DNA from: a virus
DNA: 64,000 nt
Strand: one strand, 5' to 3'
Virus record (IMG/VR): IMGVR_UViG_3300038415_000126
Location: 34,514-98,513 of that record
Under the pieces are notes generated by a model. The model saw nothing but the letters and a program-made list of their open reading frames with translations, did not search any database and had not been told where the DNA came from. Shown in pieces: positions 1 through 62,913 of this stretch (within the stretch, counting starts at the first letter, position 1; each line of letters opens with the position of its first letter). The position numbers and the translations under genes are program-made.

Positions 1-443
1 TCAAGTGTTTCCCGACAGAAGTGGTCTGACATTCGATGTTCGTTGACTACGGAAAATCCACCATAGGTGAACGATGCGGGGGCAACACCATTCAAGATGT
101 CCTGAATGCAGGCTCGGTACTTGTCTAGATTCTGCAAGAAATCTTCAAGAGGGGTCTTCCTAGCGAGAACCTCCTCGACCATGTGATCCGTCACATAATC
201 ATCAGCAAGCCGATCAAGGCGCTCTGGGCAACACACTTTGACCCATTCGACAAAAGGTCTCTTCTTGCTGGGTTTTAGGCCACCCAGTACCTTGATCCCC
301 TTTTCGTCAAGGGGAGACTTGAGCTTCTTGGCATTCTGATACTTCTTGTTGAAGGCCTCAACTTCTTTGACGGCCGCGTCCCAAAGCGACACTTCAGCGG
401 TCTTGTATCGGGCTGCTACCCGTAGCGTGATAGGGTCAGTCAT
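1..443 (-). CDS. Partial protein with DPITLRVAARY N-terminus
   Basis: Leftward gene beginning at ATG 443 and running off the left edge; about 147 residues are visible with no stop. Its first residues, MTDPITLRVAARYK, match the start of the adjacent upstream metallopeptidase. The remainder is charged and Lys-rich, and I do not recognise a family. Its ATG overlaps the upstream stop (ATGA), so the two are probably translationally coupled. Function unknown; the shared N-terminus suggests a common destination. Confidence 0.8.
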   Translation of the reverse strand, partial: MTDPITLRVAARYKTAEVSLWDAAVKEVEAFNKKYQNAKKLKSPLDEKGIKVLGGLKPSKKRPFVEWVKVCCPERLDRLADDYVTDHMVEEVLARKTPLEDFLQNLDKYRACIQDILNGVAPASFTYGGFSVVNEHRMSDHFCRETL

Positions 444-1684
444 TTTCCCACCAAAGTCTCAAATGGCTCGACCAATGCTCTCGGGAGCCTGTCAAGACAG
501 TAGAATGCGAACATCTCAGCGAAGTTCTCACTAGGTCCACCCTTCTTGGCATAGTTCGTCACAAAGCCTTTGAAGTCGGGTTGAGTGAGGTCACGAGTCT
601 TCTCACCTTTCATAGACAACCAACCATCAAGATCGATCTTGTAGTTGGTCCCTGGCTTGGATTCGGTGACCATGTGCACTACCCATGAACCTCGCCCATT
701 GGGTATGGTCTGAGTCACCTGGAACGTCTTGCCCTTGTTGACCACAGTATCACCGATAGCGGGAAGTAAGGCCTTAGTTTCGGATAGACCCTTACCATCC
801 TCTTGGTTTTCGATCACACGGTACAATTGTTTAATGTCCCAATCACGACCCTTCATGAACTGGTGTTGATAGCGATGTCCTAACTCATGGATAGTGGTTT
901 TCAGGATGTCCGGGGAGGCTTTTGCGTCAGCTCGAACGAACATCTCATCAGAGTTAAAAAGGTAGAAAGCATAGGCGTTACGCATCAGCTTGTTGGTGAC
1001 CTGGATGTCTCCGTAGCAGACCTTGCCGAAGCCCTTCGACTTCAGATGTGCTTGAGCCTTCTGGGCCAAGTCAGTAATTGTATCCATGACCTTACCAGGG
1101 AAGCCCCCAGTATTGACCAGTGTGAAGTCACCCACCTTGATTCGAGTTGCCCCCTCACCCCCTTCTGAGTGAGCCTTACCAGTCCCAACGGCCAGTATCG
1201 CAACCGCAAGATGGCCCTTGAGTTGAGCCATCCGCTTCTCGTAGATGTCAAACTTTTCGAGGTCTCTTTCAATCCCACGTTGCTTAATCCTCGGAAGGCC
1301 AACACTGGCATAAACGAGCGCCGCCTTCTCGACTTTCTTCCTCAGGGGTTCTGGTAGGACCTTTTCCTGCAAGATTGAGAGGAACAACGGATCAAGAACC
1401 CCATTGGCAAGACCTTCAAACCCTTTCGTTGCCTTGAACCAAGCCTTGTAAGCTAGATCCTCAGCTTCAATGTATCCAGGCCACTTTCGTTCCCATGTAT
1501 GGGGGCCAACCTTTTCAGCTTCGAGGTACTCGTTGATGACTTTCCGGGCTTTAGCAATATCCTGCTCGGGGATCTCCAATAACGCGACCCCAGCTATGAA
1601 CTTGTGCAGTAAGGCATTAGGGTCACCTACTGCCTTAGCCCGCAGGTACCTAGCTGCTACTCGGAGGCTGATCGGGTCTATCAC
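440..1684 (-). CDS. Zincin-like metallopeptidase (HELGH motif)
   Basis: 414 residues from GTG 1684. I chose this start because VIDPISLRVAARYL then aligns with the start of the next gene; a longer frame reaches 1771. Residues 266-270 read HELGH, the HExxH zinc and catalytic signature, and a downstream SENFAEMF segment (about 385-392) can supply the third ligand. It is therefore likely a secreted-type or virion zinc peptidase; the substrate is unknown. The N-terminal half is helical and unrecognised. The motif is seen directly; peptidase activity is inferred from the family. Confidence 0.8.
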   Translation of the reverse strand: MIDPISLRVAARYLRAKAVGDPNALLHKFIAGVALLEIPEQDIAKARKVINEYLEAEKVGPHTWERKWPGYIEAEDLAYKAWFKATKGFEGLANGVLDPLFLSILQEKVLPEPLRKKVEKAALVYASVGLPRIKQRGIERDLEKFDIYEKRMAQLKGHLAVAILAVGTGKAHSEGGEGATRIKVGDFTLVNTGGFPGKVMDTITDLAQKAQAHLKSKGFGKVCYGDIQVTNKLMRNAYAFYLFNSDEMFVRADAKASPDILKTTIHELGHRYQHQFMKGRDWDIKQLYRVIENQEDGKGLSETKALLPAIGDTVVNKGKTFQVTQTIPNGRGSWVVHMVTESKPGTNYKIDLDGWLSMKGEKTRDLTQPDFKGFVTNYAKKGGPSENFAEMFAFYCLDRLPRALVEPFETLVGK

Positions 1685-2889: not shown

Positions 2890-3008
2890 CAGCTGACCTT
2901 TTCCCCTTTGAGGACCCGCTCGAAGGTCCTGGTAGCCCAATCGAGAGCTTCACGAGCTGTCATCACGTAGAACTCTTGCCCACAGGTGGCGCACTTCTTG
3001 GAGTACAT
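2889..3008 (-). CDS. 39-residue zinc-knuckle peptide
   Basis: Short gene from ATG 3008 with AGGA 5 nt upstream; it begins MYSKKCATCGQEFYVMTARE. CATCG is a zinc-knuckle CxxC. It ends TGATG, overlapping the next start by one base, and overlaps the 3' end of the preceding zinc protein in another frame. A GTG at 3050 could add 14 residues. Coupling at both ends supports a real gene. Confidence 0.55.
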   Translation of the reverse strand: MYSKKCATCGQEFYVMTAREALDWATRTFERVLKGEKVS

Positions 3009-3174
3009 CTTGGTCCTGAGCGACAAGGTGTCGACCAAGGTACCCTTCACACTCTAGGCAAACGTAGCCCAAGTAATGGCGAAGTGGCTCATCACCTGGA
3101 ACTACTTGATGCCCAGTGTCAAGCACATGCTGATGGCAGTCTCGAACGAACTTGACTGGGTCATCATAGTCCAT
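2950..3174 (-). CDS. Small Cys/His protein, zinc-binding candidate
   Basis: 74 residues; CHQH near residue 13 and CLEC near residue 39 give a plausible CxxH/CxxC metal site. It starts 11 nt after a GGTGTA element. Function unknown. Confidence 0.6.
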   Translation of the reverse strand: MDYDDPVKFVRDCHQHVLDTGHQVVPGDEPLRHYLGYVCLECEGYLGRHLVAQDQDVLQEVRHLWARVLRDDSS

Positions 3175-3817: not shown

Positions 3818-4289
3818 TGGCTTCAGGTACACCAGGGGGCCTCGCTCTGTCAACCATCTCGTACAGGTCGTACAGGTCCCGCGCGATAGCCCGTAGTGCG
3901 CAGACAGCCGGACTGAACCTCTCCGGTTCAGTCAAGATGCTGAAGAAGTTGTCATATTCGATGATTGACCGCTTGATTCGAACTAGCTCATGCCAGGGAT
4001 CGGTCTTCGTCCCAATCAAGCTCCTCAGGCTGTTGCACTGATCAACCCCCGGCCTAGCCAGGGAGCGAGCCCAAGTGTTCCGGCCCTCGACCGTGAAAAA
4101 GTACCTAGTCAGTAGTTCCCGTCTCTCTTCTATGGGGATGGCTTCCCCGTCCCTTGACATCTCCTGCAGCCGGGTTACCGTCAGGTCGAGGTACCATTGG
4201 ACGCGAGCCCGGTGACCAGCATCCTCGACATCCTCCTCCTGAGTGACATCTTGGAGCTTATCCAGGTACCATTCCAGATCGACGGCCAT
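3696..4289 (-). CDS. Paralog family member (EWYL family), 197 aa
   Basis: Starts at ATG 4289 (MAVDLEWYLDKL), one base past the upstream stop. It aligns along its length with the proteins at 14549-15082 and 15091-15624: a WYxxLT helix, an RxxLxxxYxFTxxGR block, an EYDNFxSI block and an FxPAVCxxRA block. All helical; function unknown. The last 50 residues are less conserved and overlap the membrane-protein gene. Confidence 0.65.
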   Translation of the reverse strand: MAVDLEWYLDKLQDVTQEEDVEDAGHRARVQWYLDLTVTRLQEMSRDGEAIPIEERRELLTRYFFTVEGRNTWARSLARPGVDQCNSLRSLIGTKTDPWHELVRIKRSIIEYDNFFSILTEPERFSPAVCALRAIARDLYDLYEMVDRARPPGVPEANDPRKTAADPGLCERPGDDPVTNSDVHLAAVIEEDEQGAG

Positions 4290-9848: not shown

Positions 9849-10619
9849 TCACTCATCCGATCTAAGCACACCCAGACCGAGACACAACTTAGTCACGAGA
9901 CTAGCATATTCTGGCCCACGAGGGAGGTCTCGGTTTACATAGACCCTTCTCCTCAAAGCCATACTCGTCTCGTTCTTCTTGGGGTTGAACCCGTTCTTCT
10001 CGAAGTTCTCCCAGTAAATCCCGCAACCCCGCTTTTGCCATGCAGGAACGTTATTGAAGTTGATCCCGTGCTTGTGCAAGAGCTCGTTCTTCTCACTGAA
10101 GGTCTTGCCCTCAAGAGCTTTCGTCGCTTCCAAGGCGCTCTTGCCCTTGCCTCGAAGCGTCCAGTAGCACCACCCATTGAGGCAGCACCGGGAAGCATCC
10201 GACTGCCTCCATCTGAAGTAGTCGACCACGTCATCATTCGAAACCCCAACCCACACGCGACTATCAAAGTGAGCCGGATAACTCAGTTTGACTGAGAAAA
10301 TAGAACTTGCCACGCCCGCGGACACCGAAACCAGCTTCTCGATCTCTCGACCGAATAAGTCGGTATCACGGGGTAAGAGAACGCTGATCTCATCCGACTC
10401 CGTGAAGGCGTAGAGCCCACCCAGCTCGACTAGTAGGGCAAGAGCCGTCGCCACCATGTAGTCGTGGAACTTGTGGTCAAAGGGGTGCTCAAACACCTTG
10501 GTCAATCGAGTGAAGCTCCGTCCATCAACGCGAATAACCATCCAAGCACCGGGAAGGGCCGCCATCGAGTGGTAACACTCAAGTCGTCGCATCCTGTCTT
10601 CAAGGCTATCGGACTTCAT
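9849..10619 (-). CDS. thg1: tRNAHis guanylyltransferase-like protein (Thg1/TLP)
   Basis: 256 residues. IRVDGRSFTRLTK (about 29-41), the metal-binding start of the Thg1 palm, is followed by FEHPFDHKFHDYM and by YAFTESDEISVLL (about 70-82), which supplies the second acidic pair. Thg1 adds G to the 5' end of tRNAHis; bacterial and phage-type Thg1-like proteins do template-dependent 3'-5' repair of 5'-truncated tRNAs. The neighbouring kinase strengthens a repair role. The family call is firm; which reaction it performs is not. Confidence 0.88.
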   Translation of the reverse strand: MKSDSLEDRMRRLECYHSMAALPGAWMVIRVDGRSFTRLTKVFEHPFDHKFHDYMVATALALLVELGGLYAFTESDEISVLLPRDTDLFGREIEKLVSVSAGVASSIFSVKLSYPAHFDSRVWVGVSNDDVVDYFRWRQSDASRCCLNGWCYWTLRGKGKSALEATKALEGKTFSEKNELLHKHGINFNNVPAWQKRGCGIYWENFEKNGFNPKKNETSMALRRRVYVNRDLPRGPEYASLVTKLCLGLGVLRSDE

Positions 10620-22003: not shown

Positions 22004-22024
22004 GAGGCCCTCTAGGGTGACAAT

Positions 22025-22166
22025 GTAGTTTTTCGTGGTCCCCCTACATGTAGTTTTTCGTGGTCCCCCTACATGTAGTTTTTCGTGGTCCCCCTACATG
22101 TAGTTTTTCGTGGTCCCCCTACATGTAGTTTTTCGTGGTCCCCCTACATGTAGTTTTTCGTGGTCC
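22025..22166. repeat. 25-bp tandem repeat array (5 units plus partial)
   Basis: Five exact units (22025-22149) begin GTAGTTTTTCGTGGTCCCCC and end TACAT; a sixth diverges after 17 nt. Adjacent units create CTACATGTAG palindromes at each junction. Iteron-like or operator array beside the RHH gene. TAGTTTTTTGACACG with the same ACATG flank recurs at 30556. Confidence 0.85.
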
Positions 22167-22726
22167 ACTCAAACGGACCACGCTGGACCACGGTTGCCTA
22201 CCCCGCAAATACCAAACCCACCCGGTCCGAAATTCTAAAATAACCAATCATTCACAATTAACCCACAATTCAATGCGCTTCCGCGCGCTGATATGTTGTG
22301 TGTTTCCATACTCCAATCGAACCAGCACACACTTTCACTGCAGTTCACCGTGTGTTTCGTGTGGCCTGCTTAGATTCACAGTAAAACACACAACGAATGA
22401 CATCGCGCCTCCGGCGCCCTGTGTTTCACTGTGAAAAGTATCATGGTAGGATACACGCACCTGAACGAGGCGCGAAGCGACAGGTTGGGGTGGGTGGGTT
22501 CATGGATAACCCTGAATGGCTCCCTCGACGTTCTAGTATGTAGGCAGAGGAGCGGTTCAGAGCTATAGGTCTGAGAGGGGTAGATGCGCACATGATGGTT
22601 AGAGGATGCGTTCGTAGCTATAGCTACGAAGCTAGTGCTTGCACACATGGTGAGCTAAAGTATCGTTGAAACCTGTATACAAGTATGAACCGATACTATG
22701 CTTACACGTAGAAAGTATAAAGTTGG
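22167..22726. other. Non-coding region, palindromes, possible replication or control locus
   Basis: No convincing gene. It holds several GTGTG/CACAC tracts, TTTCACTGTGAAA (near 22424-22436), a GCGCCTCCGGCGC dyad near 22405, the 20-bp palindrome at 22611 and AGTATCG/CGATACT arms at 22652 and 22691. It separates the leftward and rightward blocks. Confidence 0.45.
22611..22630. promoter_or_regulatory. Perfect 20-bp palindrome, candidate operator
   Basis: TTCGTAGCTATAGCTACGAA; related sites occur at 30522 and 30575. Confidence 0.55.
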
Positions 22727-30078: not shown

Positions 30079-30483
30079 ATGCCAAGTCAGGTACTCTACA
30101 CGCACTCATTGGATGGGACGCGCTATCAGGTTGAGTCAGAGGCGGGGCGTCAGTACACTGCGTATCTCTTCAATAGCCAACAAGAGGACAACTACAGTGT
30201 TCTAGTACTAGTGAGGGCTAACACACTGGTTGTAGCCCACTGGTCTATATTCAGAAATCAGCATAGGACTGAAGAAGAGCGGTTGGAGTTCATCACTGGG
30301 ACAGTTGACATCATTGATCGTAGGGTTGAGGTCAACCCCGTTGACCCAGAGGAACCGACTGTTGTTCCGACTGTTGTCGAAGAGCCATATGCCGGCCCCC
30401 GCCCGACTCGCTATGAGAAGATCTTGAGCGAGCTACCGGGGTCGCCCGAGGACATCCTGGCCTCGATGGGCCTTCGTTTATAG
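30079..30483 (+). CDS. Unknown protein, 134 aa, tag-like TRYEKIL near C-terminus
   Basis: Beta-rich N-terminal domain, EEPTVVPTVVEEP linker, then GPRPTRYEKILSELPG and a helix. TRYEKIL recalls the variant tags TRYDKVL and NRYTKIM at 53.3-53.5 kb, but here 20 residues follow it. Confidence 0.6.
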   Translation: MPSQVLYTHSLDGTRYQVESEAGRQYTAYLFNSQQEDNYSVLVLVRANTLVVAHWSIFRNQHRTEEERLEFITGTVDIIDRRVEVNPVDPEEPTVVPTVVEEPYAGPRPTRYEKILSELPGSPEDILASMGLRL

Positions 30484-30521
30484 AACGCTTATACTGTATA
30501 AGCATGTGTGCTATGCCCACG

Positions 30522-30541
30522 TTCATAGCTATAGCTACGAA
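30522..30541. promoter_or_regulatory. Palindromic operator candidate, one mismatch
   Basis: TTCATAGCTATAGCTACGAA differs at one base from the perfect palindrome at 22611. Confidence 0.5.
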
Positions 30542-30574
30542 CCTACGCTCCGCCCACATGTAGTTTTTTGACAC

Positions 30575-30596
30575 GTTCGTAGCTATAGGCGCGAAC
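30575..30596. promoter_or_regulatory. Degenerate third copy of the palindrome
   Basis: GTTCGTAGCTATAGG then CGCGAAC; left half identical to the others, right half diverged. Confidence 0.4.
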
Positions 30597-30632
30597 CTCT
30601 CGCGAAACTACATTGTATCAGATACTTTGAAG

Positions 30633-30661
30633 TTGAGATCCGTCGAGCTGGCGCGTAATAC
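30633..30661 (+). promoter_or_regulatory. Class A promoter without a gene
   Basis: TTGAGA (30633-30638), 17 nt ending GGCGCG, TAATAC (30656-30661). No start codon follows; a terminator does. Confidence 0.7.
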
Positions 30662-30666
30662 TAGGC

Positions 30667-30732
30667 GCATACTGATTCTCCAATCGGTTAGAACCAGCGG
30701 TAACTGTCCAAGGTGGCCGCTGGTTCTTTTTT
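30667..30732 (+). ncRNA. Candidate small RNA, about 65 nt
   Basis: Region between the class A promoter and an intrinsic terminator, with no reading frame. Predicted start near 30667, 3' end in the T-run. Function unknown; RNA mapping would decide. Confidence 0.5.
30690..30732 (+). terminator. Intrinsic terminator
   Basis: AGAACCAGCGG pairs perfectly with CCGCTGGTTCT across a 16-nt loop, followed by TTTTTT. Confidence 0.8.
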
Positions 30733-30736
30733 CTTA

Positions 30737-31178
30737 AGGTACTTGACCGCACACCCGCTCGAAGCTATCATCCGACCTGCATACGGTCACCCGCCACTCC
30801 TGAACAGTCCTAGTGACTTCCTTCCTGAGTGGGCCTGAGGAGCCCGAAGCAAAGACCAACGAACCTCACTCATCGAACAGGGTTAGTCCCTTCCTTCCTC
30901 TGAGTGGCAAGGCTCGAAGGCAGATGTAGATACCATAACCCAGCTTGGCCTCCGGCGGCCCTGCTAGGTTCTCAGTAAGCTGACGATCTCTGTCCCCTTG
31001 GAATCAGCCCATCCTTCCCCTTAGTGGGTAAACACAGGCCTTGAGAGACGCCCCGAGTCCGAAGCTGAACGAACCGCAGGCCTAGGTAGGATAAAAAGCG
31101 CAATTGCAGCCTGAATCCCGCACCTTCCATGGTGACGCTCGGAGACGGGCTAAAGGTGTATTTAGGCTACTTAGTTAG
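30737..31178. other. Non-coding region with degenerate repeats
   Basis: No gene seen. CCTTCCTGAGTGG (near 30820), CCTTCCTCTGAGTGG (near 30893) and CCTTCCCCTTAGTGG (near 31013) recur; CCGAAGC...GAACC recurs near 30844 and 31059. GGGC/GCCC-type short hairpins follow the first copies. Could be a structured RNA or decayed repeats. Confidence 0.4.
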
Positions 31179-31250: not shown

Positions 31251-31631
31251 ATGAATTCTATACCACATCTACTCAAGTTGCATTGGATACAGGCTAAGAG
31301 CGAGGGGACGCCCGGGGTTACATCCTTCGCTTGCCAGGGGACATGGATCTACAAGATGGATCCGGCTAGCCCGAACATGTACTTCAGGATCCTCATGAAG
31401 GATGCCTTCCGGCCAGAGCCCCTTGATCTGTTCCGGATAGGTGCGACCCACTCCCTGCAGATCACCATGCCCATGCACTGGGAGCCTGTGGATGTATGCG
31501 GCAACCCACTCAGGCCTTCCCAAGCTTCGTGTACCCCCAAAACCCTAATACCACCGGCCATGGTCCCCCCATCAGCCCAGCCGCACAGTATTGATGAGCT
31601 GTTCAACCCGGCCGAACTTCTTAACCTGTAA
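31251..31631 (+). CDS. Unknown protein, 126 aa
   Basis: Begins MNSIPHLLKLHWIQ; Pro-rich C-terminus (PPAMVPPSAQP). No family recognised. Conventional leader and ribosome site. Confidence 0.6.
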   Translation: MNSIPHLLKLHWIQAKSEGTPGVTSFACQGTWIYKMDPASPNMYFRILMKDAFRPEPLDLFRIGATHSLQITMPMHWEPVDVCGNPLRPSQASCTPKTLIPPAMVPPSAQPHSIDELFNPAELLNL

Positions 31632-31656
31632 ACCATCAACCCACATAGGAACGCCC

Positions 31657-31779
31657 ATGCTCAAACACTGGCTCAGCCAACTCCGGCTCATGCTTCGAAC
31701 CCTCTTCAACGGGCCCGCTACCTCACGTCGCTCTGTCGTGAGACGTGAGGCGGACGCCAAGGTCCAGACGCCCCTCTAA
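31657..31779 (+). CDS. Possible 40-residue basic peptide
   Basis: ATG 31657 with ATAGGAACG upstream; MLKHWLSQLRLMLRTLFNG is an amphipathic basic helix. It lies between a gene and a strong hairpin; weak support. Confidence 0.35.
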   Translation: MLKHWLSQLRLMLRTLFNGPATSRRSVVRREADAKVQTPL

Positions 31780-31798
31780 GACTGTTCGATTACCATGT

Positions 31799-31846
31799 AA
31801 GCCAGAGGGCGACACGGCTGTAGAAAGCCCTGTCGCCCTCTGGCTT
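31799..31846 (+). terminator. Strong hairpin, likely terminator
   Basis: AAGCCAGAGGGCGACA (31799-31814) pairs perfectly with 31831-31846; short TTT follows. Confidence 0.65.
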
Positions 31847-32314
31847 TGGCATACTTATTGACATGAGCTCATGTTCAACCCACACCTAACGCCCATTGTG
31901 TGTAGTACTACACGATTACTGTGTAATACACGGGCAATGTGTGTAGTGAATATGCGATATTGAGTATATTGTGGGATAACACACAGTCAACGTACGCGGA
32001 GCGGGTGTTATATGTGTGTTGTGAGTATGTGTGAAGGGTTGTTCATATTCGCTCGATTATCTTTTTCCGGCTAGCCGGAAGGGGTAAAGTGGCGTATTCA
32101 GGTAACGCGCGGAAGTTTCACCGTGGTACGGTATTCCAGGGTCAACTCAGGGCGCCTCCGGCGCGGTGAAAGACATGGAAACATAACGATCAGACCCCCA
32201 CCCCTATGAAAGGGGACCCATCGAGGGCGGGTGTCAGGTCAAAATTTGGCTATGGCGGCTAAATTTTCCTGAAATGAGGTAATTACCAGGGACTTACTAT
32301 GCTACCCCTAACAA
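31847..32314. other. Non-coding region rich in palindromes, origin candidate
   Basis: Palindromes ACATGAGCTCATGT (31861), GTGTAGTACTACAC (31900), near-palindrome GTGTAATACAC (31921) and TTCCGGCTAGCCGGAA (32065), many TGTG/CACA tracts, AT-rich GATATTGAGTATATTG. CGCGCGGAAG and GCGCCTCCGGCGC echo the 22.2-22.4 kb region in inverted orientation. No gene seen. Confidence 0.45.
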
Positions 32315-42502: not shown

Positions 42503-43843
42503 ATGTCTGCTGATCTGATCCAGAGAGTAGCGTCAAGATTCATCGAAGCTTCCGCGCCTATCGTCGTGAAGGAGGTTGACGGGAGAATTGAAGTCTCTGG
42601 GCCTTACGACAAGATGAAGGACCTGATTCCATATCTACGTGGAAAGTTGGAGTATCGAGGCCAAGATCGTACTTGGTGGGTTCCGAAGGCGAAGATGACC
42701 CCAATGAAGATCAAGAATCTTCAGAAGAGGGTTGATGAGGTTAATGGGAAATTTGGACCAGACCCAGTGAAGGTAGAAGAGCCAGCGGATGCTAAGGCAA
42801 CTCGCATTGAGGAGGCCAAGAAGCTACTCAGCAAGGCGATCCACATGAGGGTTCCTGGACTTACCTTCATCAATATCGCGGGCGATGGGGCTCAGTTGAC
42901 TGGGGCGCTCACTGATTTGAGAGTGCTGATCAACATGTCTGGGGGAGACTATGGCCCAGAGTTCTCGAAGTTCTTCTCACAGAAAATCAAGCCAGTAGAG
43001 TTCGAGAAGCTCCTGGACGCGGTTGAAGATCAGGGTAGGCTTGTGGCCAAATCCCTTGCTGACCTGTCCAGCATCATTCCGCGCAACTTCCCAAACTTGC
43101 AGATTAACGTGGGGACCAACAACGGGAGCTACCTATTCGTAGTAGCTGGAAAGACCTACGACTTCAAGGATGAGATCAAGAAGCTAGTACCGGTGACCTT
43201 CAATGGCCAAGGGAGTTTCTGGTGGGCTCCGGTCCACCAGGTCAAGGAGGCTCAAGTCAAGAAGTTGATTGAGTACCTTGAGGGTGAAGAGCGGGCGCGA
43301 GCTGAGAAGTGGAAGGCTGAAAAGGTAGAGCGGACACCGACACAGAAGGCGAAGAGGCCTAATCGTAGAGGGGATAATTGCTTAACCTGCGGAGCATGGG
43401 TAGGGGCTGGTGAGGGTTATCTTGTAGACCATTGGGACAATGATGAGGATGAGCTAGTCTACAAGGTGGTTCATTCTGATCCTAGTATATGCGCTGAGGT
43501 CAAGGAGAGGGCTAGAATACGTCACGAAGAGGCCAGGACAAAGCGTGAAGCTCAGAGCAACCTGTACAAGCTATGTGCAAAATCAGAGTACTATATGCAA
43601 GGTACAGGGCATCGACCACCAGGTGAGCAGATCTGGATTGACAAGACTGCTCTTGGGTATGGTGGTGGGACTTGGGTAGTCATCGAGCCAGGGGAGAACT
43701 ACTTCTGGTATGTCAAGAACAACGGGGCTGACGGTGACGATTGGTCCCACAACAATGTCGAGACGGGTGGTGCTGGGGCCATTGGGTATCGACTTCCGAT
43801 GACGAATGAAGCGCGCGTGCTCATTGACGTGGCCAAGGAATAG
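42503..43843 (+). CDS. 446-aa protein with two DUF5710-like modules, N-terminal RVASRF
   Basis: Begins MSADLIQRVASRFIEAS, a relaxed version of the DPIxLRVAxRY start. Two similar modules: YDKMKDLIPYLRGKL...DRTWWVP (about 35-65) and TYDFKDEIKKLVPVTF...GSFWWAPV (about 215-245), resembling DUF5710/HARP-like DNA-related modules. A zinc-type CLTCGAWVGAGEGYLVDHW follows (about 293-311), then an aromatic C-terminal domain. Probable nucleic-acid-associated protein; function unknown. Confidence 0.65.
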   Translation: MSADLIQRVASRFIEASAPIVVKEVDGRIEVSGPYDKMKDLIPYLRGKLEYRGQDRTWWVPKAKMTPMKIKNLQKRVDEVNGKFGPDPVKVEEPADAKATRIEEAKKLLSKAIHMRVPGLTFINIAGDGAQLTGALTDLRVLINMSGGDYGPEFSKFFSQKIKPVEFEKLLDAVEDQGRLVAKSLADLSSIIPRNFPNLQINVGTNNGSYLFVVAGKTYDFKDEIKKLVPVTFNGQGSFWWAPVHQVKEAQVKKLIEYLEGEERARAEKWKAEKVERTPTQKAKRPNRRGDNCLTCGAWVGAGEGYLVDHWDNDEDELVYKVVHSDPSICAEVKERARIRHEEARTKREAQSNLYKLCAKSEYYMQGTGHRPPGEQIWIDKTALGYGGGTWVVIEPGENYFWYVKNNGADGDDWSHNNVETGGAGAIGYRLPMTNEARVLIDVAKE

Positions 43844-56804: not shown

Positions 56805-56833
56805 TTGAGAAAGTTGTCTCTCGCGCGTAATAC
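56805..56833 (+). promoter_or_regulatory. Class A promoter
   Basis: TTGAGA (56805-56810), 17 nt ending CGCGCG, TAATAC (56828-56833), 8 nt to ATG 56842. Confidence 0.8.
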
Positions 56834-56841
56834 AGAGTATC

Positions 56842-57420
56842 ATGTCCAAGTACAGCAAACCCGAACTCGAACAACAGGCTAACGAGCTCAACAATCAGAT
56901 TTTAGTTGGGCTGGCCGCGATTGGGATCAAGGCTGAGCTGAATGATTGTACCGATGGGATCAAGATTCCTGAGTATACTTACGACATTGCTAGCGTGCGT
57001 GAGCCAAATGGGGAATCTGGTTTCAGTCGTCAACCTACAGGTAAGCTTGAAGTGGACTTCCGATCAGTCCACATGGGTCGAGGTTGCCTTTGCCATGCCA
57101 AGCGGTTCAAGGCTGATACCAAGGATCTGGTCCAGAAAGTGGTCTCCAGCGTCAAGGAGCGTCGGGAGGCTATCGTCGCCCAAGCTAAGCGTGAACGGGA
57201 AATGGGTAAGGCGCGGAGCGCTCACCAAAAAGTCCTCAAGAGTTTGAGCCTTGATTTCCCTGACTTCAAGGGTAACATCGTGAATCACAGTTCTCAGATC
57301 AACCTGAACTTTCATTGGTTGGATGAGAGCAAGGCGCGAAGGATACTCCTTGCGCTTCGGGCTGCCGGTATCAAGGGTGACCGGGGATTCGGAGAAGATG
57401 ACCCAGAGAACGAGGAGTAA
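56842..57420 (+). CDS. Unknown protein, 192 aa
   Basis: MSKYSKPELEQQANELNNQI start shared with the 45189 protein. CLCHAKRF near residue 80 and a basic helix follow; acidic tail EDDPENEE. Function unknown. Confidence 0.65.
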   Translation: MSKYSKPELEQQANELNNQILVGLAAIGIKAELNDCTDGIKIPEYTYDIASVREPNGESGFSRQPTGKLEVDFRSVHMGRGCLCHAKRFKADTKDLVQKVVSSVKERREAIVAQAKREREMGKARSAHQKVLKSLSLDFPDFKGNIVNHSSQINLNFHWLDESKARRILLALRAAGIKGDRGFGEDDPENEE

Positions 57421-57421
57421 C

Positions 57422-57751
57422 ATGGACATTCCAGGCATTGAGTACATCGTGGTCTGCAGAGAAGACCGGAAAGAGGACGGTACTCCCGGTGAGTACACCC
57501 TGGTGACCCGTACCATTTTCCCCACCAAGGAGGCAGCGGACAAGTTCGCTTCCGAGTGTGCGAGCGAGCGACAAGCCCTGGTCGTAGGTGGCCGGTTCAG
57601 CCAGCTACGACATGACTTCGAGGAGAGATTTCCAAAGCCTCTCATGACCGATTGTGCTAAACACGGGCATACTGAAGCTTTTGGGTATGATGCCGGTGTA
57701 ATGTGCAAGGCTTGCTTCATTGGAGCCTCTCGATATGTAGGCATTCCGTGA
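57422..57751 (+). CDS. Unknown Cys/His protein, 109 aa
   Basis: From ATG 57422, GAGGAG upstream. C-terminal CAKHGHTEAFGYDAGVMCKAC is a plausible zinc site. Confidence 0.62.
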   Translation: MDIPGIEYIVVCREDRKEDGTPGEYTLVTRTIFPTKEAADKFASECASERQALVVGGRFSQLRHDFEERFPKPLMTDCAKHGHTEAFGYDAGVMCKACFIGASRYVGIP

Positions 57752-57778
57752 GATTAACTATCAAACCTAATGCACCCC

Positions 57779-58108
57779 AGCTCGGTTGGCCGCGAGCTAG
57801 TCAGGTTGTCCCTGACGAACGGAACCGGGCAGGCCACCCGGAAAAAACACCTGTGACCGGAGGTCTCGTAGGCTTGGCTGCGTAGGATGGTATGACCGAG
57901 GGGTTCGCCCCGGTGACGTCGGTACTGACCACCAAGCACCTTTGAACTCTGGCATAATCGCCCGTCAGGTAGGCGATAAGGAGGCAGAATCCAGCCCCTC
58001 GAATCTCGCAGCAATAATTTGACTAGCTACGAGATTGTGTTGCCGATGGTAAAGAGCGGCCCGTCTGGCTTAGTTTAACCTCCATTTTTCTAAGCTGGCG
58101 GGCCGCTC
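57779..58108 (+). ncRNA. Candidate structured non-coding RNA, about 330 nt
   Basis: Seven good helices in a gene-free stretch: AGCTCG/CGAGCT (57779-57798), GTCAGG/CCTGAC (57800-57816), CCGGG/CCCGG (57825-57841), GGGG-TTCG-CCCC (57900-57911) inside ACCGA/TCGGT, ATCGCC/GGCGAT (57857+100 to 57977), AATCTCG/CGAGATT (58002-58036) and a long GAGCGGCCCG/CGGGCCGCTC helix with inner GCTTAG/CTAAGC (58054-58108). Not a tRNA or a known riboswitch to my eye. It ends 12 nt before the next ATG, so it could be a regulatory leader or an independent RNA. Confidence 0.6.
58054..58108 (+). terminator. Long hairpin before the next gene
   Basis: 10-bp outer and 6-bp inner perfect stems; the loop holds CCATTTTT but no T-run follows. 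Terminator or attenuator. Confidence 0.45.
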
Positions 58109-58120
58109 GCCTAACTTCTC

Positions 58121-58636
58121 ATGCCCCTTGTTACCCGATCAGTGTTGTACCTCAAGGATGGTACGCCTTTCGACCCTTCTGTGGGTCCAGTTGATCTGAG
58201 TACAACTTGGTGGGAGCTCCACGAGATTGAGCTCCCAGAGTGGCTCTCGACCAAGGAGTACTGCAGGAGCTTTATCAAGTGGAAGCACTTCTGGGGCCTC
58301 GGGGGTAACCCAGAGTGGCCTGAAAAATGGCAACGACTCTTGTCTCGGGGTGGTTCTCCGGCGGATAGACTCGCGTGCATCCAGCTACTCAAGACCAAGA
58401 AGTTCAGGAGCAAGTTCCGCAGCGACCTCTGCGCCCAGCTCGTGAAATGGATGAACGAGGAGCGCTACCCGACCCCGTTCTCTCCTAGGCAGTGGGAAAA
58501 GCTGGTCAATAAGTACGTTGTATGGCGGGCCGAGCGCCTAGAATCCGCTCTTCGGCGAGACAAGAGCTACTACGGGGTACCCAAGGACAACTTGGAAATA
58601 CAAATTCTGGTTGAGAATTTGAAACCTAGCGCGTAA
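58121..58636 (+). CDS. Unknown protein, 171 aa, C-terminus encoded by a promoter
   Basis: TTWWELHEIELPEWL near the start recalls the TWWQ opening of the tagged pair. Basic helical middle. Last residues VENLKPSA are the translation of a class A promoter; TAA is the start of its -10. Confidence 0.62.
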   Translation: MPLVTRSVLYLKDGTPFDPSVGPVDLSTTWWELHEIELPEWLSTKEYCRSFIKWKHFWGLGGNPEWPEKWQRLLSRGGSPADRLACIQLLKTKKFRSKFRSDLCAQLVKWMNEERYPTPFSPRQWEKLVNKYVVWRAERLESALRRDKSYYGVPKDNLEIQILVENLKPSA

Positions 58637-61830: not shown

Positions 61831-62913
61831 ATGCACTACCATGATCCAGACAAGAAACGCGCGCATGTAATAGTCTTCTACCGAGACTTCAAGGACTACG
61901 ACGACTATGGGGACTACGGGTACGAAGGTTACGGCCGTTGTCACCGGGGTTTGGGTATCAATGCCCTCATGACCGTCAAGTGTCTGCGTAAAGCCGGCAT
62001 ATGCGCTGACCTGAGTGCAGTCATGCACCTAGAAGATGTCAAGAAGGAGCTTACCAAGCACAACCCCACCCATGCTGTGATTCAAGCATTATGGATCTCA
62101 GCGGAAGACCAAGCAGAGCTTTGCCAAGCATTCCCTAATACCCACTTCATCGTCCGGTGTCACAGCCAGATTGGGTTCCTGCAGGTCGAGCCGAATGCCA
62201 TCAAAATCCTGCGCGACCTTCTATTCATGCAGGAGTTGCAGCTCAATCTTTCGGTCTCGGCCAATACCCATCGATTGAGGGAGTTCCTTGAGCAGACCTA
62301 CAAGAGCCGGGTGGTCTACTTGCCGAACCTCTATGATGTTGAGCGTGTTCGCCGGAAGCGGGACGAGAGCCATGACCATCGAGTCCTGAGAGTCTCTAGC
62401 TTCGGGGCCCATCGACTACTCAAGAATCACACGACGGCCGCGGCTGCTGCCCTGATGATGGCCGAGCGGCGCGGGTCCGACTTGGAGTTCTATGTGAACG
62501 CCGGACGTGAGGAGAACCTTCCGAAGAAGTCGTCAGTGATCTCGTCGTTGAAGGCAATGTTCGACCGGTTGTCGTGGGCCAAGCTCATCGAGAGTCCGTG
62601 GGCGGAGTGGAGCCAGTTCAGAGCAACCGTAGCGCACATGGATCTCTGTATGCAGGTTTCCTTCACGGAGACCTTCAATATCGTGACCGCTGATGCTGTT
62701 GCAGAGGGAGTACCTAGCGTGGTGTCCAGTGCTATCGAGTGGACACCGGAACGATGGCATGCCGAAGTCGACAATGCCGCTGACATCGCTCGGGTAGGGT
62801 CCAGTCTACTCTGGGACACTCATGCTGCTGAAGAGGGGCTTCATGCCCTGGAAAGGTACCTCAAGTGCGGGATCAAGCACTGGTTGGAGTACCTGGACAG
62901 CAACCCCACCTAG
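61831..62913 (+). CDS. GT-B glycosyltransferase (GT4-like)
   Basis: 360 residues from ATG 61831 (GAGGA upstream; GGTGTA 24 nt upstream). N-terminal Rossmann domain (HAVIQALWISAEDQAELCQA), middle YKSRVVYLPNLYDVERVRRK then RVSSFGAHRLLKNH, and MQVSFTETFNIVTADAVAEGVPSVVS (about 275-300), where the ExFNxVxADAxAxGxPxV acceptor matches the GT4 nucleotide-sugar motif. May modify host surface, phage structural protein or DNA; substrate unknown. Confidence 0.75.
   Translation: MHYHDPDKKRAHVIVFYRDFKDYDDYGDYGYEGYGRCHRGLGINALMTVKCLRKAGICADLSAVMHLEDVKKELTKHNPTHAVIQALWISAEDQAELCQAFPNTHFIVRCHSQIGFLQVEPNAIKILRDLLFMQELQLNLSVSANTHRLREFLEQTYKSRVVYLPNLYDVERVRRKRDESHDHRVLRVSSFGAHRLLKNHTTAAAAALMMAERRGSDLEFYVNAGREENLPKKSSVISSLKAMFDRLSWAKLIESPWAEWSQFRATVAHMDLCMQVSFTETFNIVTADAVAEGVPSVVSSAIEWTPERWHAEVDNAADIARVGSSLLWDTHAAEEGLHALERYLKCGIKHWLEYLDSNPT

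What the first reader, a model, noticed from the sequence alone, without database searches (positions are those of the whole stretch)
57779..58108. About 330-nt gene-free stretch with seven strong helices
Consecutive hairpins, one with a stable GGGG-UUCG-CCCC stem and one with nested 10- and 6-bp stems, far exceed what unconstrained sequence shows in this window. It is neither tRNA nor rRNA, and protein frames through it look unnatural. It could be a new phage ncRNA or leader regulating 58121.
Basis: seen in the sequence. Interest (0 to 1): 0.78.

Follow-up and report, generated by a model that had tools for sequence, protein, structure and literature searches.

The report
Phage intergenic spacer with terminator-like hairpin
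A 369-base stretch between two phage genes is truly non-coding, but only one of its seven proposed RNA hairpins is clearly exceptional, and that one belongs to a set of strong hairpins this phage carries between many of its genes, so it looks like an ordinary transcript-end signal rather than a new functional RNA.

Summary
The window is the last 64 kb of a 98.5-kb IMG/VR phage fragment. The stretch 57752-58120, between two + strand genes of unknown function, is gene-free: its best reading frame scores below coding sequence. It has no Rfam match (E<=10), no tRNA and no sequence relative in any collection searched. 'Seven strong helices' does not hold up. The number of helices is ordinary for this genome. 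The folding excess (z about -3) comes mostly from one stem-loop, H7 (58054-58108, 10+6 bp, pair probability ~1.0, z -6). Without H7 the + strand is unremarkable (z -1.15, matched by 30% of genome windows). The GGGG-UUCG-CCCC stem is predicted to be occupied only ~5% of the time. H7 belongs to a class: 15 perfect stems of at least 11 bp in the genome against 0.5 in shuffles, 12 of them between genes; one keeps its position and pairing in a ~75%-identical relative although its bases changed. The phage's leaderless promoter motif is absent from the stretch. Best reading: a read-through intercistronic spacer ended by a terminator-type or transcript-end-protecting hairpin 12 nt before gene 58121. 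A discrete ncRNA or regulatory leader is not excluded: no relative covers this locus, so covariation could not be tested.

The parts
57752..58120 (+). Gene-free intercistronic spacer between genes 57422-57751 (+) and 58121-58636 (+)
   Evidence: Hexamer coding score negative in all six frames and below the 5% quantile of coding windows; gene calling; no Rfam/tRNA
58054..58108 (+). H7: stem-loop, 10-bp GC-rich outer stem and 6-bp inner stem (12+7 with G-U pairs on the + strand), 16-nt terminal loop; no U-tract after it; ends 12 nt before the ATG at 58121
   Evidence: z -6.0 (+), -4.5 (-), 0/400 shuffles; 5th most stable 60-nt window of the + strand of the 98.5-kb genome; pair probability ~1.0
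58002..58036 (-). H6: 7-bp stem on +, 11 bp with one G-U on -; competes with a long-range pairing 57795-57803/58020-58028
   Evidence: z -2.4 (+), -4.1 (-); pair probability 0.43 on + against 0.57 for the long-range pairing; inverted repeats I1, I2
57825..57841 (+). H3: CCGGG-caggcca-CCCGG, likely formed but short
   Evidence: pair probability 0.93; segment H1-H3 z -1.1 on +
57957..57977 (+). H5: ATCGCC/GGCGAT hairpin, followed by an SD-like AAGGAGG without a nearby start codon
   Evidence: pair probability 0.65; z -1.4; sequence
57900..57911 (+).
   Evidence: pair probability 0.04-0.05
58121..58636 (+). Downstream gene, 171 aa, unknown function, no SD-like sequence and no promoter-motif match before its ATG
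56805..56841 (+). Nearest upstream match to the phage promoter motif (TTGAGA-N14/15-GCGTAATA, then ATG at 56842): likely start of the transcript that would run through 56842, 57422 and the spacer

Best explanation
The stretch is an untranslated intercistronic spacer of a + strand transcription unit that probably starts at the leaderless promoter before 56842. Its one significant element is stem-loop H7. H7 most likely forms in the nascent RNA and marks or protects the 3' end of the 56842-57422 transcript, as a termination hairpin without a U-tract or as a processing/exonuclease block, just before gene 58121. The other 300 nt show no excess structure on this strand and need no function. Shown: non-coding; H7 real and far beyond chance; H7 one of a class of long intergenic hairpins; no promoter motif. 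Inferred: transcription, termination or protection, and that 58121 is reached by read-through or by a promoter of another type.
For: H7 alone carries most of the signal (without it, z -1.15 on +). Class evidence: 15 loci with perfect stems >=11 bp against 0.5 expected, 12 of 15 in the 25% of the genome that is gene-free; all 7 stems of >=14 bp are gene-free. Several abut stop or start codons on one strand: 71861-71900, 64577-64614, 96267-96296, minus-strand 2969-3049 and 3838-3919 (genome coordinates). The hairpin after gene g127 is at the same place in relative G002 with a largely different but fully paired 17-bp stem, there followed directly by a promoter and a gene. H7 is more stable as + strand RNA (-35.5 against -30.8), the strand of the flanking genes. 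The hairpin at 2969-3049 (-) shares GAGCGGCCC with H7 and has a U-rich 3' flank and a following gene start. Terminators without poly-U are reported to be common in bacteria (PMC8355165).
Against: No U-tract after H7, and the terminator scan does not list it (which allows loops of at most 8). H7 lies about 300 nt after the upstream stop codon, whereas in PMC8355165 98% of the correctly identified terminator sites lie within 80 nt of one. If H7 terminates, 58121 needs a promoter that was not found. No expression data. The - strand without H7 keeps some excess structure (z -2.1 to -3.3).
Confidence: 0.5

Rival explanations
1. 5' leader of gene 58121: H7 (and possibly the competing H6/long-range pairings) controls its translation or mRNA stability, for example by RNase III-type cleavage leaving a 12-nt leader for a nearly leaderless mRNA.
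For: H7 ends 12 nt before the ATG; 58121 has no SD and no promoter motif, so it must be reached from upstream; other hairpins also sit 8-28 nt before start codons; H6 and the 57795/58020 pairing are mutually exclusive.
Against: No aptamer family (Rfam); mutually exclusive pairings are common by chance; no relative available to show conservation.
Confidence: 0.2
2. A discrete non-coding RNA of about 300 nt on the + strand (3'-UTR-derived or independently transcribed) that ends with H7.
For: 300 nt of clearly non-coding DNA kept between genes and closed by a strong 3' hairpin; total fold z about -3.
Against: No promoter-motif match in or before it (best score 5.6, background level), whereas another gene-free stretch of this genome does have one (window 30633); no excess structure outside H7 on +; ordinary helix count; no Rfam match and no homolog.
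Confidence: 0.18
3. A structured RNA from the minus strand (antisense side of the spacer).
For: Without H7 the minus strand folds better (z -2.1 to -3.3) than the plus strand; H6 forms an 11-bp stem with a G-U pair only as minus-strand RNA.
Against: Both flanking genes are on +; the best minus-strand promoter scores (5.6 and 3.0) are at chance level; H7 prefers +; about 19% of gene-free windows reach the same minus-strand z.
Confidence: 0.05
4. A DNA-level element (recombination or replication site, or remnant of a mobile element) for which hairpin RNA is irrelevant.
For: H7 is a near-palindrome in DNA too.
Against: No repeats shared with the rest of the genome; the origin-like iterons and the GC-skew switch lie elsewhere (window 22023-22191).
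Confidence: 0.05

Closest known systems
Rho-independent terminator hairpins, including those without poly-U (PMC8355165)
   Same: GC-rich intergenic stem-loop on the coding strand, stronger than background, one of a genome-wide set mostly between genes
   Different: no U-tract; 16-nt loop; about 300 nt from the upstream stop codon and only 12 nt from the next start
Intercistronic RNase III processing hairpins of phages (T7 type; own knowledge)
   Same: long stem-loop between same-strand genes, close to the next start codon
   Different: processing not tested; no sequence relation claimed
Phage ncRNAs GOLLD and ROOL (PMC12286853)
   Same: long non-coding stretch in a large phage
   Different: far smaller (GOLLD often exceeds 800 nt); no Rfam match at E<=10; no tRNA island near; no covariation evidence

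Membership tests
Intrinsic (Rho-independent) terminator | Stable GC-rich stem-loop in the RNA of the transcribed strand | tested here: met
   H7 z -6.0, pair probability 1.0
Intrinsic (Rho-independent) terminator | U-tract directly after the stem (textbook form) | tested here: not met
   GCCTAACTTC follows; not listed by the scan
Intrinsic (Rho-independent) terminator | Transcript 3' ends map to it | not testable with these tools
   no RNA data held
Long intergenic hairpin class of this phage | Long, highly stable stem located between genes | tested here: met
   H7 is the 5th most stable 60-nt window on +; the class is enriched about 30-fold over shuffles at >=11 bp, though H7's outer stem is 10 bp
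Long intergenic hairpin class of this phage | Position and pairing kept in a relative with changed bases | tested here: inconclusive
   shown for the hairpin after g127; the relative does not cover H7
Known structured RNA family (Rfam 15: GOLLD, ROOL, riboswitches, group I/II introns, RNase P, tmRNA) | Covariance-model match | tested here: not met
   no match at E<=10
Independent phage ncRNA gene | Own promoter of the phage's recognised type | tested here: not met
   best score 5.6, background; real sites score 22-36
Independent phage ncRNA gene | Compensatory base changes in relatives | not testable with these tools
   no relative covers the locus
Type V tracrRNA of the phage's own CRISPR locus | Anti-repeat complementary to the CRISPR repeat | tested here: not met
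   duplex energies equal to those of shuffled spacers

The most novel reading that the evidence does not exclude
The spacer encodes a new phage-specific non-coding RNA, or a switching leader in which the 57795/58020 long-range helix and H6 are alternatives, that ends with H7 and controls gene 58121.
Probability: 0.15. Interest if true: 0.5.

Novelty: new member of a known kind. Interest (0 to 1): 0.22.

Why it matters
It shows that a by-eye count of helices is misleading at about 54% G+C: ordinary windows of this genome hold just as many. It also uncovers how this phage appears to mark transcript borders, with strong leaderless promoters and long intergenic hairpins, one of them preserved in a relative through compensatory changes. 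If the hairpins terminate or process transcripts without U-tracts, that is a testable rule for annotating large uncultured phages, and it points to a better small-RNA candidate at window 30633-30738.

Tried and rejected
Known RNA families and tRNA/tmRNA: none. Coding gene missed in the spacer: rejected, all six frames score negative. tracrRNA for the phage's type V-like CRISPR locus: rejected. Second copy in the same genome: none. Homologs by DNA in phages, plasmids and related viral records: none. Homologs by neighbouring proteins: 56842 and 58121 gave none in viral or genome contigs; 55850 none; 61831 gave a 363-kb phage without local synteny; 59720 gave only 33-41% relatives; window 440-1684 gave G002, about 75% nt identical and collinear over genome 23026-81807, but ending before the locus. 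An exact 16-mer pattern from the UUCG region: 33 chance hits, none homologous. First attempt at a genome-wide shuffle control timed out and was repeated smaller.

Full report
Setting. The window is positions 34514-98513 of a 98,513-nt IMG/VR virus record; genome coordinate = window coordinate + 34513. A simple hexamer-based gene caller places 177 genes on 75% of the record. Most tested neighbours have no family match; Thg1, a weak glycosyltransferase match and a methyltransferase (PHROG) are exceptions. The spacer in question, 57752-58120, lies between genes 57422-57751 and 58121-58636, both on + and both of unknown function. It is the 15th largest gap in the record as the caller draws it (390 nt there, because it chose a GTG start at 58142), so its size alone is not remarkable.

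Is it gene-free? Yes. The best of six frames scores -0.289 per codon, whereas coding windows average +0.209 and even other gene-free windows average -0.204. There is no tRNA or tmRNA, no Rfam family at gathering threshold and none at E<=10 on 57600-58300.

Is it unusually structured? Only in part. The 330 nt fold with z -3.0 to -3.4 on + and -3.7 to -4.1 on - against dinucleotide shuffles. Taken apart, one element dominates: H7, 58054-58108, z -6.0 on + and -4.5 on -. Removing it leaves z -1.05 on + and -2.06 on -. With pairing limited to 75 nt the rest scores -1.15 on +, matched or exceeded by 30% of windows of this genome, and -3.29 on -, matched by 4% of all windows and 19% of gene-free windows. 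The number of helices is ordinary: 9 on +, against 7.9 in shuffles and a genome mean of 7.9; 78% of windows have at least seven. The GGGG-UUCG-CCCC stem has a pairing probability of about 0.05 in the full spacer RNA, because other pairings win. In a GC-corrected scan other regions rank above this one: genome 27226-27665, 66166-66606, the CRISPR region 30306-30746 and 97241-97626.

What H7 is. Perfect stems of >=11 bp are 30 times more frequent in this genome than in shuffled sequence (15 loci against 0.5); 12 of 15 are in gene-free DNA, and all 7 of >=14 bp are. H7 (10 bp perfect, plus 6 bp inside) is the 5th most stable 60-nt window of the + strand, and the windows ranked around it are mostly intergenic as well. 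Several of these hairpins stand right after stop codons or 4-30 nt before start codons of genes on the same strand. In the related contig G002, the hairpin after gene g127 is in the same place with a largely different but fully paired stem (TCCCAACCATGCTCCATG against CCAAATGCGTTCCATGA), and a phage-type promoter and gene follow it directly. That is compensatory evolution for one member of the class, though not for H7 itself. The minus-strand hairpin at genome 2969-3049 shares the arm GAGCGGCCC with H7 and carries a U-rich 3' flank. H7 is more stable as + strand RNA than as - strand RNA (-35.5 against -30.8), in line with the direction of both neighbours.

Transcription context. The phage has a strong promoter motif, TTGAGA-N14/15-GCGTAATA, usually with ATG about 6-8 nt behind it, so that many mRNAs must be leaderless; the relative G002 has the same motif. 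Matches stand before 55850, 56842, 58639, 59720 and 60943. None stands before 57422, in the spacer, or before 58121 (best score in the spacer region 5.6, background level; true sites 22-36). The simplest transcript therefore starts at 56842, runs through 57422 and the spacer, and either ends at H7 or reads through into 58121.

Mechanism and rivals. I favour H7 as a transcript-end element (termination or 3' protection), with the other 300 nt as untranslated spacer. Against it: no U-tract, a long distance from the upstream stop, and no promoter found for 58121. Lack of poly-U is not decisive: a survey of 13 bacterial genomes found poly-U/A directly at terminator hairpins in a small minority (PMC8355165). 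The leader reading has real weight because H7 ends 12 nt before an ATG that lacks a Shine-Dalgarno sequence. A discrete ncRNA is possible but has no support beyond H7. A minus-strand RNA is the least likely of the transcribed options.

What could not be tested. No relative covers the locus. G002 stops at genome 81807, the 363-kb G001 shares the gene at 61831 but not its surroundings, and protein- and pattern-based scans of viral and genome contigs found nothing else. No RNA data are held. The verdict rests on folding statistics, promoter absence and the class comparison.

Noticed in passing
window 30633-30738 (+): Strong phage-type promoter not followed by an ATG; an RNA starting near 30664 would end in a 12-bp hairpin plus UUUUUU, i.e. 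a ~75-nt small RNA with promoter and textbook terminator (z -5.2). No Rfam match above chance. Better ncRNA candidate than the finding.
   Followed up: partly
outside the window: genome 27666-29639 and 30552-31447 (L003 7666-9639 and 10552-11447): CRISPR array with 36-nt repeats GCCTCAGTGGTTCATTGAGTGTATGGGGATTGGAGC, about 13 copies, next to a 657-aa protein with weak Cas12f/Cas12u matches (E 2e-4 PADLOC, 0.013 PDB): a phage-borne type V-like CRISPR system.
   Followed up: partly
window 22023-22191: Five direct repeats at 25-bp spacing (CTACATGTAGTTTTTCGTGGTCCCC, each with a palindrome) in a 762-nt gene-free stretch where the GC skew changes sign: looks like origin iterons.
   Followed up: partly
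window 31799-31846: 16-bp perfect stem, part of the most stable local fold of the whole fragment on both strands (-43.5/-45.8 per 60 nt), in the gene-free stretch 31653-32093.
   Followed up: no
whole window, e.g. 55816, 56805, 58611, 59685, 60908: Leaderless promoter motif TTGAGA-N14/15-GCGTAATA-N6-8-ATG before many genes, also in the relative G002.
   Followed up: partly
genome 20717-20825 and window 43247-43285: Two identical 37-nt repeats enclose ~35 nt that match (97% over 39 nt, inverted) the phage's own gene at window 42503-43843; origin unclear.
   Followed up: no
window 31251-31631 (+): 126-aa reading frame behind a phage-type promoter (31179) and an SD-like GGGGAG, missed by the gene caller.
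   Followed up: no
window 9849-10619 (-): tRNA-His guanylyltransferase (Thg1, E 7.5e-28) encoded by a phage fragment in which no tRNA gene was found.
   Followed up: no
window 57979-57985 and 58079-58084: SD-like AAGGAGG without a start codon, and complementary AACCTCC in the loop of H7: a possible 5-bp loop contact, or chance.
   Followed up: no
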